Assembly: GCA_028820845.1 (NCBI GenBank)
Contig: JAPPII010000125.1
Span: 1-35,944 of the forward strand
Direction of reading: 5' to 3'
DNA: 35,944 nt
DNA from: Candidatus Poribacteria bacterium
GTDB lineage: Bacteria > Poribacteria > WGA-4E > WGA-3G
Shown here: positions 9,610 through 35,944 of the stretch, piece after piece
How the letters are laid out: every line of letters begins with the position of its first letter
How positions within the stretch are numbered: the stretch's first letter is position 1
Program-made: the position numbers and the translations under genes
The notes under the pieces: generated by a model
Database searches by the model: none
Told to the model about the DNA's origin: nothing
Seen by the model: only the letters and a program-made list of their open reading frames with translations

Positions 9610-10956
9610 TTAAAACGCTTTTTCTGCCTTCAGCCATTCAAGTGTCTGCGCGAATGCTGCGACCGTTTTTGTAATGTCTTCTTCGGTATGTGCTGCAGTG
9701 GTCATGCCGCCGTTGCTGGCGAGATCTATACCGTTTAGCAACATGCCACACCGGAGACGCGTTAACATATCGGCATCACTACTGCCTTTCAATTTCCGAT
9801 AGTCCCATGCGTATGGATCGAAGTCGCCGGTACGCATATCCTTTTCACCGTGTCCGACGAGGAGCTTAAGCCCTGAAAATTCGCCGTAAACGACCCAGTC
9901 GAGTTTGTAGTCGTCGATAACGCTGTTCAGTTCCGTGCGGAGTCGTGCAGCAGGGTCGTTTGCTTGCTTGTTCGGTTCGCCTGTTTTGACTAAGTTGAGC
10001 ATGGCGATACCGGCAGAGGCGGAGAGAGGATTGGCGTTAAAAGTGCCTGGGTGTGGCATTTTCAAACCGTCGGCTTCTGATTTCATGGAAATCAGTTCGA
10101 GAACCTCTTTTTTCCCCGCGAGTGCGCCGCCTGGGAGTCCGCCTGCTAAGATTTTCGCCAGTGTTGTCATATCGGGTGTAACGTTGTAATGTGCTTGTGC
10201 GCCGCCCGGGGCAACTCGGAATCCGGTAATCACTTCGTCGAAAATCAGGAGGACACCGTGTGCTTCTGTCACCTCGCGGAGCTGCTTTAAAAATGTACCG
10301 TTGGTCGGGACGGTACCGAAGGAAGCACCTGTCGGTTCAAGAATAATACACGCGATATCTTTATTTGTTTTCAGTTGCGTTTCAACGGCATCAATGTCGT
10401 TGGGTGGGCATAGCAGCGTTGTATTCCGTACTTCTTGTGGGATACCAGGGACGCTCATATCGAAAGGTGGGTATGCGCCTAAGATGACACTGTCGTGCCA
10501 ACCGTGAAAATGCCCTCTGAATTTCAACACCTTGTTTTTGCCCGTGTAGGTCCGCGCAAGACGGATTGCCATCAGTGTCGCCTCTGTGCCGGAACTCACA
10601 AAACGGACGCGCTCTGCTGATGGAATTAACTGCGTCACGAGTGAACCCCATTCCAATTCCAATGGATGGCAGGCACCGTAGTGTGTGCCTCGCTGCATCT
10701 GCGTCGTCACCGCTTCTACGACTTCGGGTGGATTATGACCGAGGAGGAGTGCCCCGTGACCCGTCCAGTAGTCGATGAACGCTTTGTCGTCAAGTCCCCA
10801 TTTCTTGGAGCCTTGTGCGTGGGTGATATAGATTGGGAAAGGGGACATATACCGCCCATCATGTGTTACGCCGTCGGGGAACAGTTGATTTGCGACATCT
10901 GACATTTCTCTGTCTTTTGCAAAAGTCTTTTGATAACGCTCTAAAATAGTGTGCAT
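9610..10956 (-). CDS. Class III aminotransferase, glutamate-1-semialdehyde aminomutase-like
   Basis: A 448-residue PLP enzyme of fold type I. SSGTEATLMAIRLAR (121-135) binds the PLP phosphate, DEVITGFR (240-247) gives the aspartate that contacts the ring nitrogen, and K268 in TTLAKILAGGLPGG is the Schiff-base lysine. The whole pattern resembles HemL and its paralogues. True HemL works in haem synthesis, but this copy sits away from any tetrapyrrole gene and has an N-terminal extension and a divergent start region, so a HemL-like aminotransferase acting on another amine or semialdehyde is at least as likely. It is divergent from the sugar isomerase gene at 11130. A TATAAT sits upstream on its strand (11011-11016), without a clear -35. 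Confidence 0.85.
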   Translation of the reverse strand: MHTILERYQKTFAKDREMSDVANQLFPDGVTHDGRYMSPFPIYITHAQGSKKWGLDDKAFIDYWTGHGALLLGHNPPEVVEAVTTQMQRGTHYGACHPLELEWGSLVTQLIPSAERVRFVSSGTEATLMAIRLARTYTGKNKVLKFRGHFHGWHDSVILGAYPPFDMSVPGIPQEVRNTTLLCPPNDIDAVETQLKTNKDIACIILEPTGASFGTVPTNGTFLKQLREVTEAHGVLLIFDEVITGFRVAPGGAQAHYNVTPDMTTLAKILAGGLPGGALAGKKEVLELISMKSEADGLKMPHPGTFNANPLSASAGIAMLNLVKTGEPNKQANDPAARLRTELNSVIDDYKLDWVVYGEFSGLKLLVGHGEKDMRTGDFDPYAWDYRKLKGSSDADMLTRLRCGMLLNGIDLASNGGMTTAAHTEEDITKTVAAFAQTLEWLKAEKAF

Positions 10957-11073
10957 CTTTTTCCCCCTTTGAGTGCCGAAAAATGGAGTAGTTTCTTAAC
11001 CATGAACAGAATTATATCATATTTTTCTTTTATTTGCGAAGTGATTTTGAGTTGTTGGATGGGTCGTGGAAAT

Positions 11074-14432: not shown

Positions 14433-16460
14433 CTATTTGAGGATAACCATGCGTCGGGTTGCAGCAAAGTCTGATGTCTGCAACGTATAGAAGTAGATAC
14501 CACTCGCTACACGTTCGCCTACAGCATTTCTGCCATCCCAATACGCAGCACTCGACGGCGTCATGTACGAACCTACCGGCTGCCAACCCAGATTCAACGT
14601 CCGAACCAAACGACCCGATACATCATAGATCTGGATTGAGACTTCTGTCGATTCACTCAACTGATACGGAATCCACGTCTCAGGATTGAACGGATTTGGG
14701 AAGTTCTGTGCCAAAACCGTCTCCTGTGGACGCACATCGCCGACTGTCAAGTCAACACTCAAGAAGGCGTTGCGGATGTCAGTCGTCGTCACCGTGCGTT
14801 GGAAGGGACCTGAGACGACGCGACCGCGATCATCGTAGAGTGCGATTTCGAGTCTATCACCTGCTTCAATGACGCTCTTGCGGTTGAGATCTGCCCAGAC
14901 AGCGGAAGAATGTTTGACATCCATCGTGATGTTCTGCGTTGCGATAGTGCCGGTGCGGAGATTTTCAGCGACGAGTGTGTAAGCTGCGCCGGTCTCCATA
15001 CCTTGAATATCGCTTGTGACGATGAATGCCCATGCGGTTTTGAAGGTAGAGAGGGCGGGTGCAGCGGCAACTTCTTCAACCACTGGTTCTTCAGGAGCCA
15101 TCTCTTCCGCCATCTCCTCTTCTTCCATCTCTTCCATCATCTCTTCTGCCATTTCTTCAGCTGGCATCTCTTCAGCTGGCATTTCTTCTACCATTTCCTC
15201 AGCTGGCATCTCTTCCGGCATCATCTCTTCAGCTGGCATTTCCTCGGCTGGCATCTCTTCAACAACCGGTTCCGGCTCAGGTTCAGGTTGATTGTCCCAT
15301 GCTGAACCTGTGAACTTAACTGTACCGCCAGTCGGTGTGTTGACGATATAACCCTTACCCCCATCAATGCTAAACCCGTTGTCTTCATCGGCAATTGTGT
15401 AACCGAGAAAATCTTGTTTTGCAGCATCGAGTTGGATAATGGCTGTTGCGCCGAGAATTTCTGCTAACGATTTGGCGGTGTAAGGTTCTGCGGGCATCAA
15501 TGGCACAGAAATCATATTCAAGCCTGGATCGAGGGTTAGATCGAAGGCGTAGGGGTCGGATACCATAGCCTCTTCGGGTACCATTTCCGCTGTGGGAGTT
15601 TCGGCGGGTGCCTCTTCAGTGGATGGGGTCTCCTCAATAGGTGGCATTTCCGCTGGTGTCTCTTCCGGAGTTGGGGTTTCCTCAGCCGGTGGCACTTCTT
15701 CAGTAGCGGGTGCCTCTTCGACTGTGGACACCTCTTCTACAGCAGGTACTTCTTCAGCGTCGGGCATCTCTTCAGCTGCCATTTCTTCTTCAGCAGGAGG
15801 TTCGACTAAGCTGTAACTCTCCAGTTCAAAGGTAATATCTTGTAGCACATCCTGAAATTTGATGGGACCGACATCAGGTGCTAACCATTGAATGAACTCA
15901 TAACGGATAATGGTAAGGGCGGTGACGACTTTCTGATTAATCTGCAACTTGGCACAATTTTCAAATGTTCCGGCTGGTGTTTCAACGTCCTCAATGGCAA
16001 GAACTTCTATCGTGCTGGTGCTGGTTGTGGGCCCTACGATTTGGAGCTCTGTGTTTGTTACGATTTCCCACTGGTGCCCGATAGGCAGCGCTGCCGGAAA
16101 AAAAGTGGCGGGTGGATCGAAAGTTGCATGTGCGATGCCGAATGCCCCTTCGTCCGTGCGGCTCTGATGGAGGAGCAGGTTTCCATCTACAACACTCACG
16201 AAGTAATCGTCAATGACGACTGTCTCTGTTCCGATGGCTTGGGTAGATATTTTTAAAAGGAACAGTCCTTCAGCTTCAAGACCTTCAGCTTCCAGAAGTT
16301 CATAGGTGCGTTGTTCCGCGCCATCGACACTCAGGAGCGTCCAGGTGTTGCCTATCTCGGATGGATAATAGTTTTGTGCAGTTGCTGTCAGCGCGAAACT
16401 ACATATAAGACTTAATACCAAAAATATTTTCGGTAAAGGCGCAAATTTCGTAAATTTCAT
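14433..16460 (-). CDS. Large secreted modular protein with a C-terminal type A-like sorting domain
   Basis: A 675-residue protein. In order: a signal peptide (about 1-28, cleaved near ATA-QNYYP); the QNYYP domain shared with both neighbours (about 29-225); an acidic Pro/Glu/Thr linker (about 226-300); a domain starting LTLDPGLNMISVPLMP (about 305-390); a Met/Glu pentapeptide tract (about 399-459); a beta-rich domain (about 470-580); and a C-terminal FlgD-like module with QNFPNPFNPETWIPYQL and a terminal Y(F/T)LQT..F....RMVILK. Such C-termini guide secretion by type IX-like systems or anchor proteins on the surface. It replaces the dockerin of its paralogues. The start overlaps the stop of the small upstream gene by 4 bases (ATGA). 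Confidence 0.85.
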   Translation of the reverse strand: MKFTKFAPLPKIFLVLSLICSFALTATAQNYYPSEIGNTWTLLSVDGAEQRTYELLEAEGLEAEGLFLLKISTQAIGTETVVIDDYFVSVVDGNLLLHQSRTDEGAFGIAHATFDPPATFFPAALPIGHQWEIVTNTELQIVGPTTSTSTIEVLAIEDVETPAGTFENCAKLQINQKVVTALTIIRYEFIQWLAPDVGPIKFQDVLQDITFELESYSLVEPPAEEEMAAEEMPDAEEVPAVEEVSTVEEAPATEEVPPAEETPTPEETPAEMPPIEETPSTEEAPAETPTAEMVPEEAMVSDPYAFDLTLDPGLNMISVPLMPAEPYTAKSLAEILGATAIIQLDAAKQDFLGYTIADEDNGFSIDGGKGYIVNTPTGGTVKFTGSAWDNQPEPEPEPVVEEMPAEEMPAEEMMPEEMPAEEMVEEMPAEEMPAEEMAEEMMEEMEEEEMAEEMAPEEPVVEEVAAAPALSTFKTAWAFIVTSDIQGMETGAAYTLVAENLRTGTIATQNITMDVKHSSAVWADLNRKSVIEAGDRLEIALYDDRGRVVSGPFQRTVTTTDIRNAFLSVDLTVGDVRPQETVLAQNFPNPFNPETWIPYQLSESTEVSIQIYDVSGRLVRTLNLGWQPVGSYMTPSSAAYWDGRNAVGERVASGIYFYTLQTSDFAATRRMVILK
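15083..15262 (-). repeat. Coding low-complexity repeat (PAEEM/EEM units)
   Basis: This stretch encodes about 60 residues made almost only of E, M, P, A and V, with the unit P-A-E-E-M repeated. At the DNA level it is a run of near-identical 15-base words (TCTTCAGCTGGCATC and variants), so it may change length by slippage and may be collapsed in short-read assembly. Confidence 0.85.
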
Positions 16461-16735
16461 ATTTTAGATTCTCCTTTTTTTAGAAAAGTAGAAGGAATTG
16501 AGCAGTTTTTGGCAATTGGAAAAGGAAACATTACAGCAGGATCACTTTCGCGCGAGCTTGGGACAAACACGAATTGTGTATAGCGGTAAAAATTTAGCGT
16601 TTCAGGAGGTTCGCGCGACCCCTCTGGAGATGGTTCATCCTGCTCTAATACGTATTGATACCCAAACCACATTCCGATTGCCACGACCAGAATAACGATG
16701 ACAATTACAACTAATGCGATTTTCCAACTTACCAT
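16457..16735 (-). CDS. Small single-span membrane protein (uncertain)
   Basis: A 92-residue frame. Residues 5-30 form one strong transmembrane helix (ALVVIVIVILVVAIGMWFGY), followed by an acidic, proline-rich stretch (EQDEPSPEGSREPPE). The last 45 residues look less like a folded domain and could reflect a frame error. The stop overlaps the next start as ATGA, and a plausible promoter lies 37 bases upstream of its ATG, both supporting a real, co-transcribed gene. The ribosome site is weak (GGA). Function unknown; a membrane partner of the secreted protein downstream is one guess. Confidence 0.45.
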   Translation of the reverse strand: MVSWKIALVVIVIVILVVAIGMWFGYQYVLEQDEPSPEGSREPPETLNFYRYTQFVFVPSSRESDPAVMFPFPIAKNCSIPSTFLKKGESKI

Positions 16736-16771
16736 ATTAAGTTTTCCAGACCTCGTTATGATAATGACTAA

Positions 16772-16800
16772 ATGTTACTACATTTGTCAGAGGTTTTCAA
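16772..16800 (-). promoter_or_regulatory. Possible promoter for the 16735-14433 unit
   Basis: On the minus strand, TTGAAA (16795-16800), 17-base spacer, TAACAT (16772-16777). The -35 is good and the -10 is fair. Confidence 0.4.
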
Positions 16801-16832
16801 CAGAAAATGACAGATTAGTTTGCTTTAAAGTG

Positions 16833-17837
16833 TTAATTACTAAGATTTTGTGCGATGCGTACCAAATCCAAAATGTTAACAATGCCGTCGCCGGTAACAT
16901 CAGCATCAGCATCAGTTTCGCCGAAACGAGAAGCCACGAAAGTGAGGTCCAAAATATTCACGAGCCCATCCCCTGTCACATCATAAGGCAGCGGTTCGGG
17001 CATAGTCTCTTCTTGTGTAGTGATGTCCTCCTCAGGTAGTGGTTGGGACGTAACTTCTTCCTCAGCCATTTCAGGTTCTTCTTGGGATATAGTCTCTTCT
17101 TCGGGAGACGGTTCGGGCATAGCCTTTTCCTCAGTCATCTCAGGTTCCTCAGCCTGAGGTGCTTCAGGCATAGTCGGTAGGTTCAAGTCTGTCAAACTAA
17201 AAATTATACCGTCGCTGTTTTCGTATTGGACGGGACCTACATCTGGTGCAAACCATTGGTAGGTGGTTGAGTCGAGATTAAGGAATGCTGTAGTCAGTTT
17301 TAAATCTAACCGGACCTTCGCACAGTTCTGGAAGGTTCCGGCTGGTGTGACGACCTCCTCAAGTCCGACGACTTCAAAATTAGTGGTACTTTTTCCAGAT
17401 ATAGTGAGTCCGACCTCTAATTTTGCTTCTGCATCCGCCACTATCTGCCATTTATCCCCCAGTCCTAACTGTAGCGGAAAAAAAGTGACAGGTGTTGGAA
17501 AGTCCGCGGTCAAGACAGCGATAGCATCTTCTAAGATAATTCTATGGATTTTAATGGCATCACTGTCGACACTCAAAAAGTACTGATCCGTCTCAGTTTC
17601 ACCCGTACTGATTTCCCTCGTACTAATTTTCAGGAGGATATATTCTTCACCATTAATAATTTCGGGTCCTTCAAGGGAATAGGTGGTCTTTTCTATACCA
17701 TCGCTGCTCTCTAAAACCCACATATTGCCAATGTCTGCGGGATAATAGTTCTGTGCTATCGCTGGGACCACAAGAGCACAAGTGAAGCTCAAAATCAGAA
17801 CTGACTTGAGCCAACGGAAAGATGTGTTTTTTTTCAT
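16833..17837 (-). CDS. Secreted protein with a QNYYP domain, acidic linker and dockerin type I-like domain
   Basis: A 334-residue protein from ATG 17837, chosen because GGAAG precedes it and a signal peptide follows at once; an upstream TTG would add six residues. The signal peptide ends near AIA-QNYYP. The shared domain starts QNYYPADIGNMWVLESSDG and includes TPAGTFQNCAK and YQWFAPDVGPVQYE, which match the paralogues (TPAGTFENCAK; WLAPD(I/V)GP(V/I)KF). A linker of about 60 residues rich in E and P follows, then two dockerin repeats, DVTGDGLVNILDLTFVASRF and DVTGDGIVNILDLVRIAQNL. It is the third member of the local family and is structurally closest to 13514-14320. The MNT-HEPN gene ends 14 bases upstream on the same strand. 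Confidence 0.85.
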   Translation of the reverse strand: MKKNTSFRWLKSVLILSFTCALVVPAIAQNYYPADIGNMWVLESSDGIEKTTYSLEGPEIINGEEYILLKISTREISTGETETDQYFLSVDSDAIKIHRIILEDAIAVLTADFPTPVTFFPLQLGLGDKWQIVADAEAKLEVGLTISGKSTTNFEVVGLEEVVTPAGTFQNCAKVRLDLKLTTAFLNLDSTTYQWFAPDVGPVQYENSDGIIFSLTDLNLPTMPEAPQAEEPEMTEEKAMPEPSPEEETISQEEPEMAEEEVTSQPLPEEDITTQEETMPEPLPYDVTGDGLVNILDLTFVASRFGETDADADVTGDGIVNILDLVRIAQNLSN

Positions 17838-28686: not shown

Positions 28687-28688
28687 GG

Positions 28689-29279
28689 TTATGTAAGCGG
28701 TGGTTGGGAAGGCTTGGTACGGATTCCAATGGCAGGTGATTCTTGTCTTAATAACGCTAAAAAGTCTTGAGATGCGTACTGGACCAAAGGACTTAGATTT
28801 TGTAAGTTCTCTGGGACTTTTACAATGACAACACTGGATTCTTGCCCATCAATTAACCAAAGAGTTGTGAGGAAAAAAGTAGGTATTTCAAGAATCCGAA
28901 CTAAAGGGTTGGTCTCTACTTCTGTATCAATCCAGCGAATAGCGTCATCAACTGCTTTGGCAAAATTACCTTTTAATATTTGCGTAACGCTCCAATCTGA
29001 AGAATTACCGTCAGACACTACAGCACGGACTACACCCTCGGGTTTGCCATCAATCCATATTTGGGAGTGCCAACGAAGTGTATCCTGAGCGAGTTCCAAC
29101 AGATTATCGTTGCCTGTATTAATTGCATCAGTTGACAAAAACCACACGGGGAATGTTTCTGTTAACGCTGCCAAAGGTTGGCGTTGTGTTACATTGTTAT
29201 CAAGTGATGGATACAATCTGCCAACCTGTTTGGCAATAGCGTCCAAAGCATCATCTGGTAACGTTTGAACGTGAGCCAT
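28689..29279 (-). CDS. Hypothetical protein coupled to the cysteine peptidase gene
   Basis: A 196-residue soluble protein from ATG 29279, chosen because AGAGG, formed by the end of the upstream gene, lies 8 bases before it; a longer frame to 29330 is inside that gene. It has no signal peptide or membrane span. WFLSTDAINTGNDNLLELAQDT and FFLTTLWLIDGQESSVVIVKVPE look like an alpha/beta fold, but I do not recognise a family. Start lies 4 bases past the peptidase stop, so translation is probably coupled. It could be a substrate, inhibitor or partner of the peptidase. Confidence 0.65.
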   Translation of the reverse strand: MAHVQTLPDDALDAIAKQVGRLYPSLDNNVTQRQPLAALTETFPVWFLSTDAINTGNDNLLELAQDTLRWHSQIWIDGKPEGVVRAVVSDGNSSDWSVTQILKGNFAKAVDDAIRWIDTEVETNPLVRILEIPTFFLTTLWLIDGQESSVVIVKVPENLQNLSPLVQYASQDFLALLRQESPAIGIRTKPSQPPLT

Positions 29280-29283
29280 TTGT

Positions 29284-29850
29284 TTACCTCTGAATCTCGA
29301 TCCAAGTATAGCTCCAATCGCCTTCTCCATACGGAGTTAGCAATTCGGAATAAGCGACAAGCCCAGACATAGTTGTAGGGCTGTCCGCTGGATCGTTTAC
29401 ATGCACAAATTCTTCCTTGTCCTCAATACGCCATCCCCGTACGATAACCGAATGCCCTGGTTTTTCCCAATCTCTCCAGAAGTATACGACTTCAACCGGA
29501 TGATCAGCATCAATTTCTGACTGCAACTCGGAAAAAGGCACGGCATCTTCTACAAATTTGCTATGTATATGCTTACGTGAATACAGATTTGAAATATCTC
29601 GTGTCTCACATGGACGGTTGCAGTTTGGGCTGGAGGGAACGGAGCAACATTCAGTCCTATTAAAAAGTTTATTTGCCAATTCGCATTGTTGAGTAGCAGA
29701 CTCGTTATAATAACGAATAACCATTTCAGCACAGGCAGCCCAACACCAATTGGATTGTTCTTGTATTATCTGAGGAACATTTATGATTTTCTCATTAGGA
29801 GACGGTTCCCGGAAATTGATTGACTTTCCTTCTTTAACTCTTAGAGGCAC
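29284..29850 (-). CDS. Papain-like cysteine peptidase (AvrRpt2/C70, C39-like)
   Basis: A 188-residue protein that matches the papain-fold pattern: NWCWAACAEM with catalytic C36, GHSVIVRGW with H133, and VNDPADS with D153. Upstream glutamines Q28 and Q32 are candidates for the oxyanion hole. Cysteines at about 56, 68, 69, 77 and 81 are an added cluster not needed for catalysis. There is no signal peptide. Family members include effectors, bacteriocin-processing enzymes and many unknown proteins. It has its own strong promoter and lies just downstream of the Zorya genes, 223 bases from zorD, with an unknown gene coupled behind it. Confidence 0.8.
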   Translation of the reverse strand: MPLRVKEGKSINFREPSPNEKIINVPQIIQEQSNWCWAACAEMVIRYYNESATQQCELANKLFNRTECCSVPSSPNCNRPCETRDISNLYSRKHIHSKFVEDAVPFSELQSEIDADHPVEVVYFWRDWEKPGHSVIVRGWRIEDKEEFVHVNDPADSPTTMSGLVAYSELLTPYGEGDWSYTWIEIQR

Positions 29851-29975
29851 CTCGTTTTCCTTTCGCAGTAATCAAGAGTTCGCTAAGTTGTGAGCGCAGG
29901 CACGTCCAGAGTCCCATTCATACAAATTGGCGGTATAAAAACATTAGGCAAAATCCAACACAAATCGTTAGTGGA

Positions 29976-30005
29976 ATTATACTACAAAAAAGCAATTCTT
30001 GTCAA
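29976..30005 (-). promoter_or_regulatory. Near-consensus promoter of the peptidase pair
   Basis: On the minus strand, TTGACA (30000-30005), 18-base spacer, TATAAT (29976-29981). It lies about 125 bases upstream of the peptidase start and about 70 bases past the zorD stop, so the pair can be transcribed without the zor genes. Confidence 0.7.
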
Positions 30006-30073
30006 AAGTTTTGTTAGCAAATGGATGTGTAAATATTTTGTCAACTGTTTTGGCAATTGACCGTCGGGAACCC

Positions 30074-33000
30074 TTAATTTGTATAAAACTGACTTTTATT
30101 GACATCTTGCCATGTCACTGGATATTGTTTCAGATTTTGAACCAACCATTTGCGTTCGTACATTTGCACCTGCTCCGAACGACTGTATTGATGTGCAGGT
30201 TTGTTAAATTCACGGTTTGTAATGACTGCAAGTTGGAAGGTTGTCCCATGTTCTTTTTCGTAATACGATTTTGCTGCTAAAACCTCTTCTACAGCCTTAC
30301 AATCAGATTTTCCACCTGCTTGTCGATGCTTAGCCTGTATCAGCAGCCCACCAGTTTTGTTTCCACGCTGGCGAGCAACGACATCTGCGCCTTTGTCCCC
30401 CGAATGTGGCGTTAATACAACATAATATCCTTGCTTATCAAAAAGTGCAGCAACAAGTGCCTCAAAGAATCTCGGTTCAAGTTTGTCAACATCCTCTATT
30501 GTTAATGGTGAATTATTTTCGTTACTAACAGGTATTGACTGCAATTGTTCAAGGATTTCCTTAGGAGTCACTTCAGCTTGTTCGGTTGGGAACAGTGTGT
30601 CTTGTGAAAGTTGGCGTTTTCGCTCAAGAAGTTCGTGCAGAAGAACATCAAAGGTTTGGAATTCAGAATGAGTTGCCATGGGTAGGTAGATATGCACAGG
30701 TCGCTTCTGTCCAATGCGATAAACCCTGTCACTTGCCTGATCTTCTTTGGCAGGATTCCACCAGCGGCTATAGTGGATAACATGATTTGCTTCAGTAATA
30801 TTCAGACCTACACCAGCAGAGAGTGGTGACATGATAATAGCGTTAAAACCTGAAGCATCTTGAAAGCGGTCTACACTTTGTTGACGGCTCATTTTCATCG
30901 AATTTTCTCGTTGCGCGCTTCCTGGCGTATTGCCATTGACGATACAGACATCCTTCAAACCGAAATATTCACGAACGACATGTGCCAACAGACGTTGTGT
31001 TTTTCGACGTTCAGCAAACAGAATTACCTTCTCGTTAGCGTTGCGAATTTTTTCGAGCAATTGTACTGTCACTACCAGTTTGGCTGATTGTTCAATCAGT
31101 TCAATAATAGGTAAATGCTCCCATTGAGAATCTGCTAGCAAGGGATGATCTGATATGTCTCTCAGTTGGTGTAGGACTTGCAATATTTGATTACGCTGCT
31201 GGGGTCCTGCTGATCCACTGTTTTGTGTAGATTGAAGAGCTGCTTGGTAGCGTTCTGCCTGTATCAGTGGCATGTCTTGTTGACAATTTTCCACATGAAT
31301 GTGTTTTTCGGGCAGATCATCAAGAATATCTGTTTTTAGTCGTCTTTTGAGATAAACGCCAATGCGCTTACGAATCCGATCACCGAGGGCGCGAATGTCG
31401 GTTTCAGGTCTCTTGAGTGGTAGACAGAATTCATTGTTGAAATTTTTCGCACTATCAAGGTAGCCCGGTGCCACGAAGTCTGTGATGCACCATAAGTCCA
31501 TCAACGAGTTTTCAACGGGCGTGCCTGTCATAGCGAGACGAAAATCGGTTTTGAGTGCTTTCAGTGCATTTGTGACAAGTGTGCCGGGTGTCTTGATGCG
31601 TTGTGCTTCATCAATGACAACCGTTGCCCACGGAATTACACCTAAATCCAATTGAAAGTCTCGGACAGTCTCGTAGGTAGTTAGCACAACATCGGCGTTT
31701 TGGAGGCGTTTGACATCAAGCGCGCCTCGGCGTTTGCGTAATTCGCGGAGCCGTTCCACTCCTTCAATCTCTGGAATTTGGAGGTTGATTGCGTCGGATG
31801 GATCACATTTGAAGTCTTGCAATGCTTTTCCGTACAATGTAATAAAATCCAGTGAACCTTTGTCAAAAAACTTTGGATATTCCGCCGCCCAGTTTTCTAA
31901 CAGTGCAATCGGTGCGACAATAAGATATGGTTTTCTTTCTGGTTCTGATGAGCGGTGTTTCGCATGGTACCACTCCAGAAAACAGAGTACTTGTAGCGTT
32001 TTGCCGAGTCCCATGTCGTCGGCAAGTAAACCTCCCAGATAACCGTTCTCCCGAAGCTGCTGTGCCCATGCAAGACCTTCTTCTTGATGCGGCAGCAGCT
32101 TGACTCCTTGTTTTAGGTTTGGAGTAGATTCCAAGAGATGCCGAAAGGGTTCTTCGGCTTGTGAACTGGACGTTTTTTCAACGTAATCGGTCTCTTCGAT
32201 ATTTTCCTCAATAATTAAAACAGTGGTTTCCGATTTTTCTCCTTGGGCACGTGAGGGCTTCTTGCGGTGTTTGAGTTGTTTTTCGATGAATGGCAGATGT
32301 TTTTCTACATCAGAAACAGGAAGTTCTTGGCCTTGCCATTTAATCTGCTTTTGCCCTGTCCGTTTTGCTTCATGAACCGTTTGTTGTAGTTCTGTGAATT
32401 CTTCCTCGGTTTTAATATGAAGTTTTGTTCGTGTCCCGGATTTATCCTCGACCAAGATTCCAGGAATCCACTGACTTTTGTAGGGCGAAACGAAAGGATA
32501 GACTCTCGGTTTATAGATGCCGATTTCGCGAACACGCTCGCTGAAGGAAGGGGTTTCATCTGTTGGATCAAGTTCAATAACCTCTGGATCAAAATATAGT
32601 TGTGGGTGTTCTGCAATTTCTGCGAGTTGTTCACGTGAGACACGTCGATAGTGTTTAAAAGTTTGCAAAGCCTCTCTCTGTTTTTCTCGAAAGACAACAC
32701 GGGTTCGTCCTCCGTCTGGCTCTGAGAGGTTATATGTAATTTGTGGATCTGGAAATTTATCAAATGTATCTTCAAATTGTTTACTGTCAATGTCGGCTAT
32801 GTCAGGGATTATTTCAACACTGTCCCCGGATTCACGAAGACGCAAGCGAAGGGTTGTCGGTGCGACAACCTCCTCTTGGTTTAGATAATGTTCTAATGTG
32901 CTGCCAGTGCCTTTAGCAAGTCCTTTGATTTTTGCAAACTCAATCAGGTTTGCTTGGAAATTTTTGTCTGTTGTATTTCGTGTGTTGAACGCGTCCAATG

Positions 33001-33490
33001 CCTCTAAGAGGGTGAACTGCTCGTGTGTCAGGAGGTACGCCCACTTCTCAGTCAAACGCAGTACACAACCGGTTCGTGTTGGATGCAAGGGCTTCCGATC
33101 GGGTTTTAAGAATTGGTAATTATAGCGAAATTCTGGCTGATTGAGCGTGCCATCGGAGCGAATTTCGATTTCAAATGGATAAGATTCTGGCAAGCCGAGG
33201 AGTTGTTGTTCGACAGACTCAAGGCGACACGCCTCTTCAAATGGGATATGAATTCCGGTGTTCGACGATACAGCTTGACCATTGTCGATCAATTCTTTGA
33301 GCAGCAGCCATTGGGTTTGTAAGTGATATGCCTCTGTTGGTAGATTTGCCGCATACTCAACCAGAGAAAGGGAGCCGCCTTTATCCTCCTCATCAGGGGA
33401 ATATGGAGCAGTAAACTCAATTCCTGTTTGTGTTTCTTGCCAGTTGAAATGGGATGGGACTGGTTTGTTTCTTCGGAATAGATTTAACAT
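30074..33490 (-). CDS. zorD: Zorya type I-like protein ZorD: SNF2 helicase with C-terminal Mrr-like nuclease
   Basis: An 1138-residue protein. After a long N-terminal region (to about 470) comes a Swi2/Snf2 motor: Walker A ADDMGLGKT (about K497), DEAQ box (about 627), MTGTPVENSLMDLW, and motifs V-VI (GVGLNITEANHVIHYSRWW; ASDRVYRIGQ). The last 140 residues are a restriction-type domain: FFEALVAALFDKQGYYVV, SGDKGADVVA (about 1030) and LIQAKH (about 1052) form the PD-(D/E)xK core. In Zorya, ZorD is recruited to degrade invading DNA after the ZorAB motor senses infection. Start at 33490 is chosen because AAGG lies 5 bases before it; an ATG at 33511 overlaps zorC. Order zorB-zorC-zorD on one strand supports the call. 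Confidence 0.88.
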   Translation of the reverse strand: MLNLFRRNKPVPSHFNWQETQTGIEFTAPYSPDEEDKGGSLSLVEYAANLPTEAYHLQTQWLLLKELIDNGQAVSSNTGIHIPFEEACRLESVEQQLLGLPESYPFEIEIRSDGTLNQPEFRYNYQFLKPDRKPLHPTRTGCVLRLTEKWAYLLTHEQFTLLEALDAFNTRNTTDKNFQANLIEFAKIKGLAKGTGSTLEHYLNQEEVVAPTTLRLRLRESGDSVEIIPDIADIDSKQFEDTFDKFPDPQITYNLSEPDGGRTRVVFREKQREALQTFKHYRRVSREQLAEIAEHPQLYFDPEVIELDPTDETPSFSERVREIGIYKPRVYPFVSPYKSQWIPGILVEDKSGTRTKLHIKTEEEFTELQQTVHEAKRTGQKQIKWQGQELPVSDVEKHLPFIEKQLKHRKKPSRAQGEKSETTVLIIEENIEETDYVEKTSSSQAEEPFRHLLESTPNLKQGVKLLPHQEEGLAWAQQLRENGYLGGLLADDMGLGKTLQVLCFLEWYHAKHRSSEPERKPYLIVAPIALLENWAAEYPKFFDKGSLDFITLYGKALQDFKCDPSDAINLQIPEIEGVERLRELRKRRGALDVKRLQNADVVLTTYETVRDFQLDLGVIPWATVVIDEAQRIKTPGTLVTNALKALKTDFRLAMTGTPVENSLMDLWCITDFVAPGYLDSAKNFNNEFCLPLKRPETDIRALGDRIRKRIGVYLKRRLKTDILDDLPEKHIHVENCQQDMPLIQAERYQAALQSTQNSGSAGPQQRNQILQVLHQLRDISDHPLLADSQWEHLPIIELIEQSAKLVVTVQLLEKIRNANEKVILFAERRKTQRLLAHVVREYFGLKDVCIVNGNTPGSAQRENSMKMSRQQSVDRFQDASGFNAIIMSPLSAGVGLNITEANHVIHYSRWWNPAKEDQASDRVYRIGQKRPVHIYLPMATHSEFQTFDVLLHELLERKRQLSQDTLFPTEQAEVTPKEILEQLQSIPVSNENNSPLTIEDVDKLEPRFFEALVAALFDKQGYYVVLTPHSGDKGADVVARQRGNKTGGLLIQAKHRQAGGKSDCKAVEEVLAAKSYYEKEHGTTFQLAVITNREFNKPAHQYSRSEQVQMYERKWLVQNLKQYPVTWQDVNKSQFYTN

Positions 33491-33504
33491 TAGCCTTACT
33501 TTAT

Positions 33505-35058
33505 TTACCATTCAAAGACAGTTTTACACTTAGGACATCTAAGTTTAACAGTGCTATCCAACACAGGGACTCGCAGTTTTTGTTGACAATTCCAATTAGG
33601 GCAATTGGTGATATAAGACTCTGGCTTTTCTTCTCTCCGCGAGGTTCGCGAAGGATTGATGATCTCAGGATTAGGTTTTCCATCCAACCTATAACTTCGC
33701 AAATTCTTAATTCCAGTTTCATTTTCTAACCACAATGCAAATTTATCTTGCCACGAATATCGCTCTGAGCCGTTGTGAATCACTCTCTCTTCAGCAAATC
33801 GTTTGGAGCTTAATTCGGTTATGTGATATTCTGAATCTCCCAATTCAAACGGTAGGTCAGCGTTGTGGTAAACATAACAGGCACCTACCGTACTAAACTC
33901 AACAAAGGTAAAATCTCCCATTCGGATGATGAAAGCGTGTTTATTTCTATTACCGCCTTTCAATTCTGCAGGACGGCGATCTCGGTAGTATTGAAGTGCT
34001 TTCGGGTCCTTTCCGAAAAGATATTCAGCATCTCTATGCAGCACGGGGCGGCAAAAGGTAATATGTTCAAAATACGCCAGCCAGAACGCTTTTCGGTAGG
34101 CAAACTTTTGGTCATTACAGGCTTTGGCAACAACATCGAAAAAGAAACGAAGATCTTCTTTTGTAAGCCATTGCGTAAAAATTTGACGTGCACCATCAGG
34201 TATATCCCGCCAGCGTATATCCGCGCCAGCGATACGTGGGTCTTGCCATTCTTGAAGGACATAAGATTGGACAGGTTGGCGTAGATTCTCAGCTGCGTCA
34301 GTCCGGAGTTTTTCAATAAGTTTGGATAAGATGCCTCGGTTTACTTTATCATTATCGTGTTTCTTCACAAATTCAATGACATCTTTAACGTGCTTAATAT
34401 CTATCTGATTGTTGAAGGTTGTGTACGCCGTGGCGACCGCGCTAAAGTATGCGTAACTATGCATATAGTTCGGCAATTCGAGAAATGTCCAAACATCTGA
34501 TAGCCTATTCGGTGAACGTATCAAGTACATTGCAAGGTTTGTTGCCCCGTTTTCCTCACAGTACCACCCTATGTTCATTTTCAGTTTCTGAACGAATTTC
34601 TGAGAGCCAGTATAGCCGTTCAACTGTTTTTTCAAAAACGATCGAAGTTCACCTGCATTTGGGGTATCCCAGGCTTGTAGCAATGCGTTGAAAATGCCAT
34701 AGAGCATGCTGATGCGAAAGCGGCTTTCGATTAAGTGAAGTGCGCTTTTAAGTTTCGGTGTGTCCACGATGCGAGGTTCTTCATTTTCGGCATAGGTCAA
34801 AGTCCAAGCGAGTTGCCGGATACGTCTGATAGAGTCAAATTCTGAGGAGAGTTTACGGGACGGTGTTTTTATAAATTGACGATAAACTTGTCTCAGACTT
34901 TCTTTCTCTGGTAGAGTAGTGTTACTCCCGTCGTGTGTTTCAATAATCTTTTTCAAAGTCGCAAGTTGTTCTTTGGGGATTGCTTTAGGTTTCGGAGTGC
35001 GAGTGGAAAAGGTGTTTGCGTTGAAATTAAATTGTAGCAGTTTTTTAGCGGAATTCAT
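33505..35058 (-). CDS. zorC: Zorya protein ZorC: EH_signature domain with a C-terminal zinc ribbon
   Basis: A 517-residue soluble protein. Region 370-460 fits the EH_signature: HAFIIRMGDFTFVEFSTVG, with E387, and RVIHNGSERYSWQDKF, with H428. The 41-residue spacing is close to that of the E. coli ZorC pair I recall (E400 and H443). The rest is mainly helical. The C-terminus adds a zinc ribbon, C486-x4-C491 and C508-x2-C511 (NCPNWNC; LRCPKC), that I do not associate with typical ZorC. In Zorya, ZorC binds DNA and works with ZorD after activation. It starts with AGGAG 8 bases upstream, and its ATG overlaps the zorB stop (ATGA). Confidence 0.85.
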   Translation of the reverse strand: MNSAKKLLQFNFNANTFSTRTPKPKAIPKEQLATLKKIIETHDGSNTTLPEKESLRQVYRQFIKTPSRKLSSEFDSIRRIRQLAWTLTYAENEEPRIVDTPKLKSALHLIESRFRISMLYGIFNALLQAWDTPNAGELRSFLKKQLNGYTGSQKFVQKLKMNIGWYCEENGATNLAMYLIRSPNRLSDVWTFLELPNYMHSYAYFSAVATAYTTFNNQIDIKHVKDVIEFVKKHDNDKVNRGILSKLIEKLRTDAAENLRQPVQSYVLQEWQDPRIAGADIRWRDIPDGARQIFTQWLTKEDLRFFFDVVAKACNDQKFAYRKAFWLAYFEHITFCRPVLHRDAEYLFGKDPKALQYYRDRRPAELKGGNRNKHAFIIRMGDFTFVEFSTVGACYVYHNADLPFELGDSEYHITELSSKRFAEERVIHNGSERYSWQDKFALWLENETGIKNLRSYRLDGKPNPEIINPSRTSRREEKPESYITNCPNWNCQQKLRVPVLDSTVKLRCPKCKTVFEW

Positions 35059-35810
35059 TGTGGGTCTCCTATCATATCCTCAAGCTCCTTGATTTTTTCA
35101 AGTTGTTTTTCTGCATTTGTCCGTACCCGAAACTCAACACGTCTCGATTCTTCACTATTTTCTATGCCGCCGAGATGCTTAATCAACTTACTTGATGATA
35201 AGCCGTTAGCGGTTAGTTGCTGCTGTAGCCAATCTCTGCTGTCTTGAATTGCAGGTATCTGAAGTACATATTGTAGGACACTTCTCGTTCTATCTTGGGA
35301 TAATTCCATATTGAAAATATAAGCTTCTGCAGGATTGACATCTTCTGACCATTCACTTGAGGTATGCCCTTCAATCCGAATTTCGGCGATAGCGTTAACA
35401 TATTCCGGACGTTTTAAGATTTGGATGTAGCGCGGAAAAAAGTTATCCAGTATCTTTTTGAAGTCGAGCTGGACCTCGGCTTTCCCTTGGGCAAATAGGA
35501 CTGTTGGTTCTCTGAAGCTAACCGATAGGGTCTCACGATCCAAAAGTGCATTCCATTGCTGAAGATCCTTCTCAAATTCTGCCTCAAGAGCGATGTGCAA
35601 ATTTTGCCTTAGTGCAGCATAATCTGTAAAAATTTTCAATAATACCTGCTGGATTTTATCGTCCTGTTTCTCTTTTTCCATCAAGTCCAACATAAGGAAG
35701 GAGAGAACAAGTATGAAAATGAGCAGGAGTCCCGCCATCAAGTCGCCTAATGAGAGACTGAAAGGATTTTCATCTGTAAGAGTTTTGGAGGTAGATAGTG
35801 TTTTTTGCAT
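35055..35810 (-). CDS. zorB: Zorya protein ZorB: MotB-like stator with OmpA peptidoglycan-binding domain
   Basis: A 251-residue inner-membrane protein. One transmembrane helix (about 19-43, LSLGDLMAGLLLIFILVLSF) carries D23, equivalent to the proton-carrying aspartate of MotB-type stators. A coiled stretch follows (about 46-95), then an OmpA/MotB domain with IAEIRIEGHTSS (141-152), LSQDRTRSVLQ (170-180) and SRRVEFRVRT (222-231). With the MotA-like ZorA it forms a proton-driven ring complex anchored to peptidoglycan that senses phage entry. The start ATG overlaps the zorA stop by 1 base (TAATG). Confidence 0.9.
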   Translation of the reverse strand: MQKTLSTSKTLTDENPFSLSLGDLMAGLLLIFILVLSFLMLDLMEKEKQDDKIQQVLLKIFTDYAALRQNLHIALEAEFEKDLQQWNALLDRETLSVSFREPTVLFAQGKAEVQLDFKKILDNFFPRYIQILKRPEYVNAIAEIRIEGHTSSEWSEDVNPAEAYIFNMELSQDRTRSVLQYVLQIPAIQDSRDWLQQQLTANGLSSSKLIKHLGGIENSEESRRVEFRVRTNAEKQLEKIKELEDMIGDPQ

Positions 35811-35944
35811 TATCCATTTCTAAGTTGGCGTGTGAGCCGATCTGCCATATCTGTCAATTCTTCAACACTGTCGTCAAGTGCTGAAACACTTTCTAAGTTG
35901 GCGTGTGAGCCGATCTGCCATATCTGTCAATTCTTCAACACTGT
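35810..35944 (-). CDS. zorA: ZorA C-terminus (partial), frame broken by a tandem duplication at the window edge
   Basis: The frame that ends at TAA 35810-35812 encodes LESVSALDDSVEELTDMADRLTRQLRNG; the TAATG overlap with zorB and the helical content fit the end of the MotA-like ZorA. In this frame a TGA occurs at 35927-35929 because a 55-bp unit is repeated with a 73-bp period, which changes frame. The copy farther from zorB encodes the same peptide in another frame and stops at 35874-35876. Most of ZorA lies outside the window. The assignment rests mainly on position and on the neighbours. Confidence 0.65.
35817..35944. repeat. Exact 55-bp direct repeat, 73-bp period, at the window end
   Basis: Positions 35817-35871 and 35890-35944 are identical over 55 bases. 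The unit encodes the last residues of ZorA. The second copy ends exactly at the last base of the window. Confidence 0.95.

What the first reader, a model, noticed from the sequence alone, without database searches (positions are those of the whole stretch)
30074..35944. Type I-like Zorya anti-phage locus in a probable Poribacterium
Four features fall in the fixed zorA-zorB-zorC-zorD order on one strand with 1-base and 4-base overlaps: a zorA tail, a MotB/OmpA stator with its membrane aspartate, an EH_signature protein with an E/H pair at matching spacing, and an SNF2 helicase fused to an Mrr-like nuclease. Zorya type I carries exactly zorC plus zorD. Zorya from this part of the bacterial tree is, as far as I know, little described.
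Basis: partly seen in the sequence, partly recalled or inferred. Interest (0 to 1): 0.85.

Follow-up and report, generated by a model that had tools for sequence, protein, structure and literature searches.

The report
Type I Zorya with type-II-like ZorB
This is a complete four-gene Zorya anti-phage locus in a sponge-type Poribacterium; its family is already known, but the cell-wall-sensing half of one motor protein looks borrowed from a different Zorya type, and sister genomes carry a very different version of it at the same chromosomal spot.

Summary
zorD, zorC and zorB lie at 30074-33511, 33505-35058 and 35055-35810 on the minus strand. The window ends at a scaffold gap; beyond it the same scaffold carries zorA (MotA_ExbB hit; type I ZorA is the best PADLOC and PDB match). 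The 55-base duplication at the window end plus the 100-N gap look like an assembly artefact. The genome is a Candidatus Poribacterium; 14 of 85 genomes of the phylum carry an EH_signature (ZorC) gene. By content and order it is type I Zorya.

Not standard: (1) ZorB is type II-like: nearest solved structure is a type II ZorB (E 4e-44, against 8e-7 for type I), and its tree clade holds all type II ZorBs sampled, yet its first 45 residues match type I ZorBs of the same phylum. (2) ZorD follows host genus, but ZorB falls into two deep forms shared across three genera; in the window's genus both forms sit at one chromosomal site beside near-equal ZorDs. (3) ZorD carries an Mrr nuclease domain that E. 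coli-type ZorD lacks; common elsewhere. (4) ZorC ends in a zinc ribbon.

Function is inferred by homology only. New variant of a known kind; moderate interest.

The parts
30074..33511 (-). zorD: SNF2 translocase/helicase (SNF2-rel_dom 475-790, Helicase_C 817-934; MGLGKT at 500, DEAQ at 634) with a C-terminal Mrr_cat nuclease domain (1009-1125; GDKGADV at 1038, QAK at 1059)
   Evidence: nearest PDB match 8qy7, a DEAD/DEAH box helicase of 1080 aa (ZorD), 434 bits, aligned only to our residue 978
33505..35058 (-). zorC: EH_signature protein, E387/H428 pair aligned with the E/H pair of enterobacterial ZorC; C-terminal zinc ribbon C486, C491, C508, C511
   Evidence: the predicted fold matches only 8r68 (ZorC) in the PDB at E <= 0.001. 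Zn_ribbon_4 at 17.8 bits is below the Pfam cut-off, so the zinc ribbon rests on the Cys pattern, its presence in four relatives and the predicted strands
35055..35810 (-). zorB: MotB-like stator, membrane Asp23 (SLGDLMAG), OmpA/peptidoglycan-binding domain 105-212; mixed: residues 1-45 poribacterial type I-like, 46-251 type II-like
35810..35889 (-). 3' end of zorA (...VSALDDSVEELTDMADRLTRQLRNG stop); the rest of zorA is outside the window at contig 36045-38304
   Evidence: nearly the same tail is present in relatives L022, L025 and L027
35890..35944 (.). Duplicated 55 bases at the scaffold gap, probable assembly artefact (not part of the biological locus)
   Evidence: Exact copy of 35817-35871 at spacing 73, followed by a 100-N gap at contig 35945-36044; the last 19 bases before the gap recur after it
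28687..35944 (.). Part of a ~10.2-kb block (contig 28687 to about 38920) that is absent from the same site in relative G061 and nearly so in G074
   Evidence: in G061 the two flanking genes lie 55 bp apart

Best explanation
The locus is a complete type I Zorya anti-phage system (zorA-zorB-zorC-zorD) in a Candidatus Poribacterium. Inferred mechanism, from the family: five ZorA and two ZorB form an ion-driven membrane motor. The ZorB periplasmic domain binds peptidoglycan when a phage disturbs the envelope. The motion is passed through the long ZorA tail. ZorC and ZorD are recruited, and ZorD translocates on and cuts incoming DNA, here most likely with its C-terminal Mrr domain. The variant feature is that the sensing half of ZorB is of the type II kind while ZorA, ZorC, ZorD and the ZorB membrane segment are of the type I kind. 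That half differs between relatives that otherwise carry a close ZorD at the same chromosomal site, so it behaves as an exchangeable module.
For: Shown by sequence. Family hits for all four proteins. PDB matches: ZorD 8qy7, ZorC 8r68, ZorA 8qyk/8qyd/8vvn (type I only), ZorB 8vvi (type II) far ahead of type I. Conserved motifs: ZorB Asp23, ZorC E387/H428, ZorD nucleotide-binding and Mrr motifs. The same four-gene order is present in the complete poribacterial relatives and most of the 80 named genome loci. ZorB mixture: to beta-form ZorBs of the phylum 72-79% in residues 17-45 but 30-38% in 101-240; to poribacterial type II ZorBs 31-45% and 57-66%; breakpoint between residues 39 and 64 in all 15 triplets, 0 of 2000 shuffles as strong. 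ZorB tree: window form in a starred clade with all type II ZorBs sampled. ZorD groups by genus. Forcing the genus on ZorB, or the ZorB forms on ZorD, is rejected. The five other loci of the genus with readable flanks sit between the same neighbours as the window's. Function of ZorAB and its parts in other bacteria: PMC11890865.
Against: No activity test of a poribacterial Zorya is known to me. NCBI equivalog cut-offs are not met. The similarity of the first 45 residues of ZorB could reflect constraint from pairing with a type I ZorA rather than recombination: synonymous sites are too few and too diverged to decide. Two of the beta-form loci are split over two contigs, and one of them may be disrupted by a transposase gene. 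That Mrr is the cutting domain is inferred; E. coli-type ZorD lacks it.
Confidence: 0.88

Rival explanations
1. The locus is an inactive remnant: zorA is broken at the gap.
For: The scaffold has a 100-N gap inside zorA and a frame-breaking duplication beside it.
Against: The duplicated unit is exactly 55 bases, a common assembler k-mer length; the same 19 bases flank both sides of the gap; and the frame read across the repeat gives nearly the tail found in relatives L022, L025 and L027. The other frames are open and the motifs are kept.
Confidence: 0.05
2. ZorB is not a mosaic. The window's form of ZorB and type II ZorB share ancestry over the whole gene, and the membrane segment merely stays alike in all poribacterial type I ZorBs because it must fit a type I ZorA.
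For: ZorA is type I in both forms and the segment packs inside the ZorA pentamer (PMC11890865). Type I loci of Myxococcota and Bacteroidota have ZorBs that score nearly alike with type I and II models. Synonymous sites do not resolve it.
Against: The cytoplasmic residues 1-16 are also alike between the two poribacterial forms (50-75%) and unlike type II (0-7%). In G050 the ZorA, the ZorB membrane segment and ZorC are close to the window's while the periplasmic part is 23-29% identical.
Confidence: 0.35
3. The proteins belong to another SNF2-based system (for example Dpd or DISARM) with a coincidental stator pair.
For: ZorD also matches DpdE (443 bits) and DrmD (70 bits) models.
Against: The ZorD model scores 1138 bits; ZorA, ZorB and ZorC are adjacent and conserved in order across many phyla.
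Confidence: 0.01

Closest known systems
Zorya type I (E. coli/Shewanella/Serratia; PDB 8qyd, 8vvn, 8r68, 8qy7)
   Same: zorA-zorB-zorC-zorD order; type I ZorA with a long N-terminal part and tail; EH ZorC; SNF2 ZorD
   Different: ZorB periplasmic domain is type II-like; ZorD has a C-terminal Mrr domain absent in E. coli-type ZorD; ZorC has a zinc ribbon instead of the enterobacterial C-terminal part
Zorya type II (ZorA-ZorB-ZorE; PDB 8vvi)
   Same: ZorB is nearest to type II ZorB by sequence, tree and fold search; poribacteria also carry type II loci with ZorE
   Different: No ZorE; ZorA is type I; ZorC and ZorD present
PADLOC PDLC00631 group of ZorD (SNF2 plus Mrr-like nuclease)
   Same: Full-length match, 1138 bits over residues 64-1137
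   Different: None in architecture; the Mrr form was seen in 45 of 80 related genome loci

Membership tests
Zorya type I | ZorA: MotA-like with long cytoplasmic tail | tested here: met
   MotA_ExbB hit; ZorA1 models best at 159 bits against ZorA2 86; PDB hits are type I only; about 773 aa if the gap is spurious
Zorya type I | ZorB: MotB-like with membrane Asp and peptidoglycan-binding domain | tested here: met
   Asp23 and OmpA domain
Zorya type I | ZorB of the type I kind (PADLOC/NCBI ZorB1 best) | tested here: not met
   ZorB2 275 bits against ZorB1 196; NCBI ZorB2 205 against ZorB1 27 bits; the tree places it with type II. Types are told apart by their effectors (PMC11890865: ZorC and ZorD for type I, ZorE for type II), so this marks a variant and does not exclude membership
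Zorya type I | ZorC with EH signature | tested here: met
   EH_Signature 125 bits; E387/H428
Zorya type I | ZorD SNF2 helicase | tested here: met
Zorya type I | Scores above NCBI equivalog cut-offs | tested here: not met
   ZorD 547 against 1500, ZorC 84 against 490; an annotation threshold rather than a biological feature
Zorya type I | Protects cells from phage; ZorA5ZorB2 assembly | not testable with these tools
   Needs experiments
Zorya type II | ZorE HNH nickase next to zorB | tested here: not met
   The neighbours are zorC and zorD; no ZorE at the locus

The most novel reading that the evidence does not exclude
In Poribacteria the peptidoglycan-sensing half of ZorB is an exchangeable cassette. 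At one conserved chromosomal site within a genus, two deeply different periplasmic domains (one shared with type II Zorya) are swapped behind a common membrane segment while the effector ZorD is kept. This would make ZorB's outer domain a diversifying, specificity-setting part of Zorya, and would join type I and type II as recombining modules rather than separate systems.
Probability: 0.35. Interest if true: 0.62.

Novelty: new variant of a known kind. Interest (0 to 1): 0.42.

Why it matters
How Zorya senses phages is the open part of its mechanism: current models put it in peptidoglycan binding by ZorB (PMC11890865). Natural loci that keep a close ZorD and the same site but carry very different ZorB outer domains are a ready-made set for testing whether that domain sets which phages, or which envelope damage, are detected. 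They also blur the line between type I and type II.

Tried and rejected
Rejected: zorA truncated by the gap (relatives' tails and the repeated flank argue for an artefact). Rejected: another SNF2 system. Rejected: Mrr fusion as new (45 of 80 loci have it, and PADLOC models describe it). Led nowhere: synonymous-site test of ZorB recombination (too few and too diverged sites). Led nowhere: whether the conspecific genome G056 lacks Zorya. Both flanking contigs break at the block and the Zorya DNA was not found elsewhere in it, so absence is not shown. The transposase-like gene after zorB in G050 means that this locus may be disrupted. One LG+G4 ZorD tree left the window's genus unresolved around the root, but genera g4 and g5 held in both ZorD trees shown and the genus labels needed only the minimum number of changes.

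Full report
WHAT IS THERE. The three complete frames lie on the minus strand: zorD 30074-33511, zorC 33505-35058 and zorB 35055-35810, with a zorA stop overlapping the zorB start by one base. Pfam gives SNF2-rel_dom, Helicase_C and Mrr_cat for ZorD, EH_Signature for ZorC and OmpA for ZorB. PADLOC gives ZorD1 at 1138 bits, ZorC1 at 131, and for ZorB the ZorB2 model at 275 against ZorB1 at 196. NCBIfam gives the same names but below its equivalog cut-offs.

THE MISSING zorA. The window is the first 35,944 bases of a 56,112-base scaffold and ends at a gap of 100 N. A MotA_ExbB hit lies just beyond it, in a frame at contig 36045-38304 whose best PADLOC matches are ZorA1 models. Its solved relatives are all type I ZorA. 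The last 55 bases of the window exactly repeat 35817-35871 at a spacing of 73, and the 19 bases before the gap recur after it. Reading across that repeat gives the frame ...LAGSVSALDDSVEELTDMADRLTRQLRNG-stop. Relatives L022, L025 and L027 end ...LAGSV(S/L)AL(D/H)DSVEELTDMAD.... I infer an assembly artefact; zorA is then about 773 aa.

WHO CARRIES IT. In the phylum, 14 of 85 held genomes have an EH_Signature gene. The complete loci are zorA-zorB-zorC-zorD. Exact scaffold lengths tie three of them to named Candidatus Poribacteria records. Outside the phylum, the best ZorD relatives come from Pseudomonadota, Acidobacteriota, Bacteroidota, Myxococcota and others, most with zorA-B-C beside them.

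THE ZorD NUCLEASE DOMAIN. The window's ZorD matches the ZorD structure in the PDB (8qy7) only up to residue 978. Pfam finds Mrr_cat in the window's ZorD but not in plasmid-borne E. coli ZorD or Kluyvera ZorD. By a profile made here it is present in 45 of 80 related loci. So this is a common form, not a new one; it offers an obvious cutting domain.

ZorC. E387 and H428 align with the E and H of enterobacterial ZorC. The predicted fold (pLDDT 84) matches only ZorC 8r68 in the PDB at E <= 0.001. The C-terminus has four cysteines in a zinc-ribbon pattern, also in L021, L025, L026 and L027. L023 has HEAT repeats there and others have little or nothing.

ZorB IS OF MIXED KIND. Its nearest solved structure is the type II ZorB of Sulfuricurvum (8vvi, E 3.6e-44), far ahead of type I (8.4e-7 and 1.5e-4). 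The predicted model also ranks 8vvi first. In a tree of 98 ZorBs the window's form lies in a starred clade with all the type II ZorBs sampled. Poribacteria also carry type II loci with ZorE. By segment, residues 17-45 are 72-79% identical to the second ('beta') poribacterial type I ZorB and 31-45% to poribacterial type II. Residues 101-240 are 30-38% and 57-66% respectively. A maximum chi-square test puts the switch between residues 39 and 64 in all 15 triplets, with 0 of 2000 permutations as strong. I did not correct this for alignment choice, and constraint from ZorA is a live rival.

ZorD STAYS, ZorB CHANGES. The mixture-model ZorD tree groups by host genus. The two ZorB forms are each spread over three genera (coded g1, g4 and g5). 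Holding genus g1 together on ZorB data is rejected (AU p 1e-36), and holding either ZorB form together on ZorD data is rejected (p 2e-65 and 6e-41). Using only loci on one contig, the ZorB form changes at least three times on the ZorD tree. Between the window and beta-form L032 of the same genus, ZorD is 82% identical while the ZorB outer domain is 36%.

ONE SITE. In the window's genus the Zorya loci with readable flanks lie between the same genes: a kdt-like transferase on one side and folB, a NAGPA-domain gene and 'flankB' on the other (L022 and L027 with both sides; L032, L145 and L146 on the zorA side; L029 and L031 on the zorD side, L029 with L146 and L031 with L145 being the two halves of one genome's locus each). 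The kdt match in L022 is only a remnant. In G061 these flanks are 55 bp apart, an empty site. The window's block is about 10.2 kb, and G+C in the Zorya part (43-44%) is below the rest of the window (45-52%). Genus g4 loci L024 and L026 show no hit to these flanks.

HOW IT LIKELY WORKS. From published work on ZorAB (PMC11890865; review PMC12904381): a 5:2 ion-driven motor, peptidoglycan binding by ZorB needed for defence, the ZorA tail needed, and nuclease effectors recruited. Everything about activity here is inference from homology.

VERDICT. The locus is a known system in a little-studied phylum, with a mixed-type ZorB and evidence for module exchange that deserve a specialist's look.

Noticed in passing
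L032:7899-9278, L028:2935-4317, L031:8104-9093: Three beta-form poribacterial loci have ZorC proteins that lost the H of the EH pair (Y, absent, R), one also the E (T), while their ZorD frame stays open; beta loci with a ZorC closer to the window's keep the pair.
   Followed up: partly
window 28689-29330 and 29284-29850 (-): A C39-like/papain-fold cysteine peptidase overlapping a 213-aa protein of no known family, inside the same inserted block; among the Zorya and flanking-site loci compared, found only in the same species.
   Followed up: partly
L006:10355-10448 and 10954-11047; L022:13013-13117: A degraded second copy (78%) of the 3' end of the flanking gene lies upstream of zorA here and on the other side of zorD in L022, perhaps a footprint of how the block was inserted.
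   Followed up: partly
L006:15196-15711 and 15730-17367 (-): A DNA methyltransferase (N6_N4_Mtase) next to a 171-aa protein of no known family, a possible type II restriction-modification pair about 5 kb from zorA.
   Followed up: no
L165:3040-8275: Prevotella plasmid: ZorA- and ZorB-like genes followed by a weakly ZorE-like protein and an FtsK-like translocase, a possible ZorAB system with another effector.
   Followed up: no
L039:5225-8896: Limnovirga type I locus with zorB placed before zorA; its ZorB lies inside the type II clade.
   Followed up: no
L149:6116-11114: Poribacterial genome G009 with two type II-like ZorB genes around one ZorE gene.
   Followed up: no
L006:7936-10305 and relatives: ZorA length varies from about 570 to 846 aa among poribacterial type I loci with similar ZorD, mostly in the tail.
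   Followed up: no
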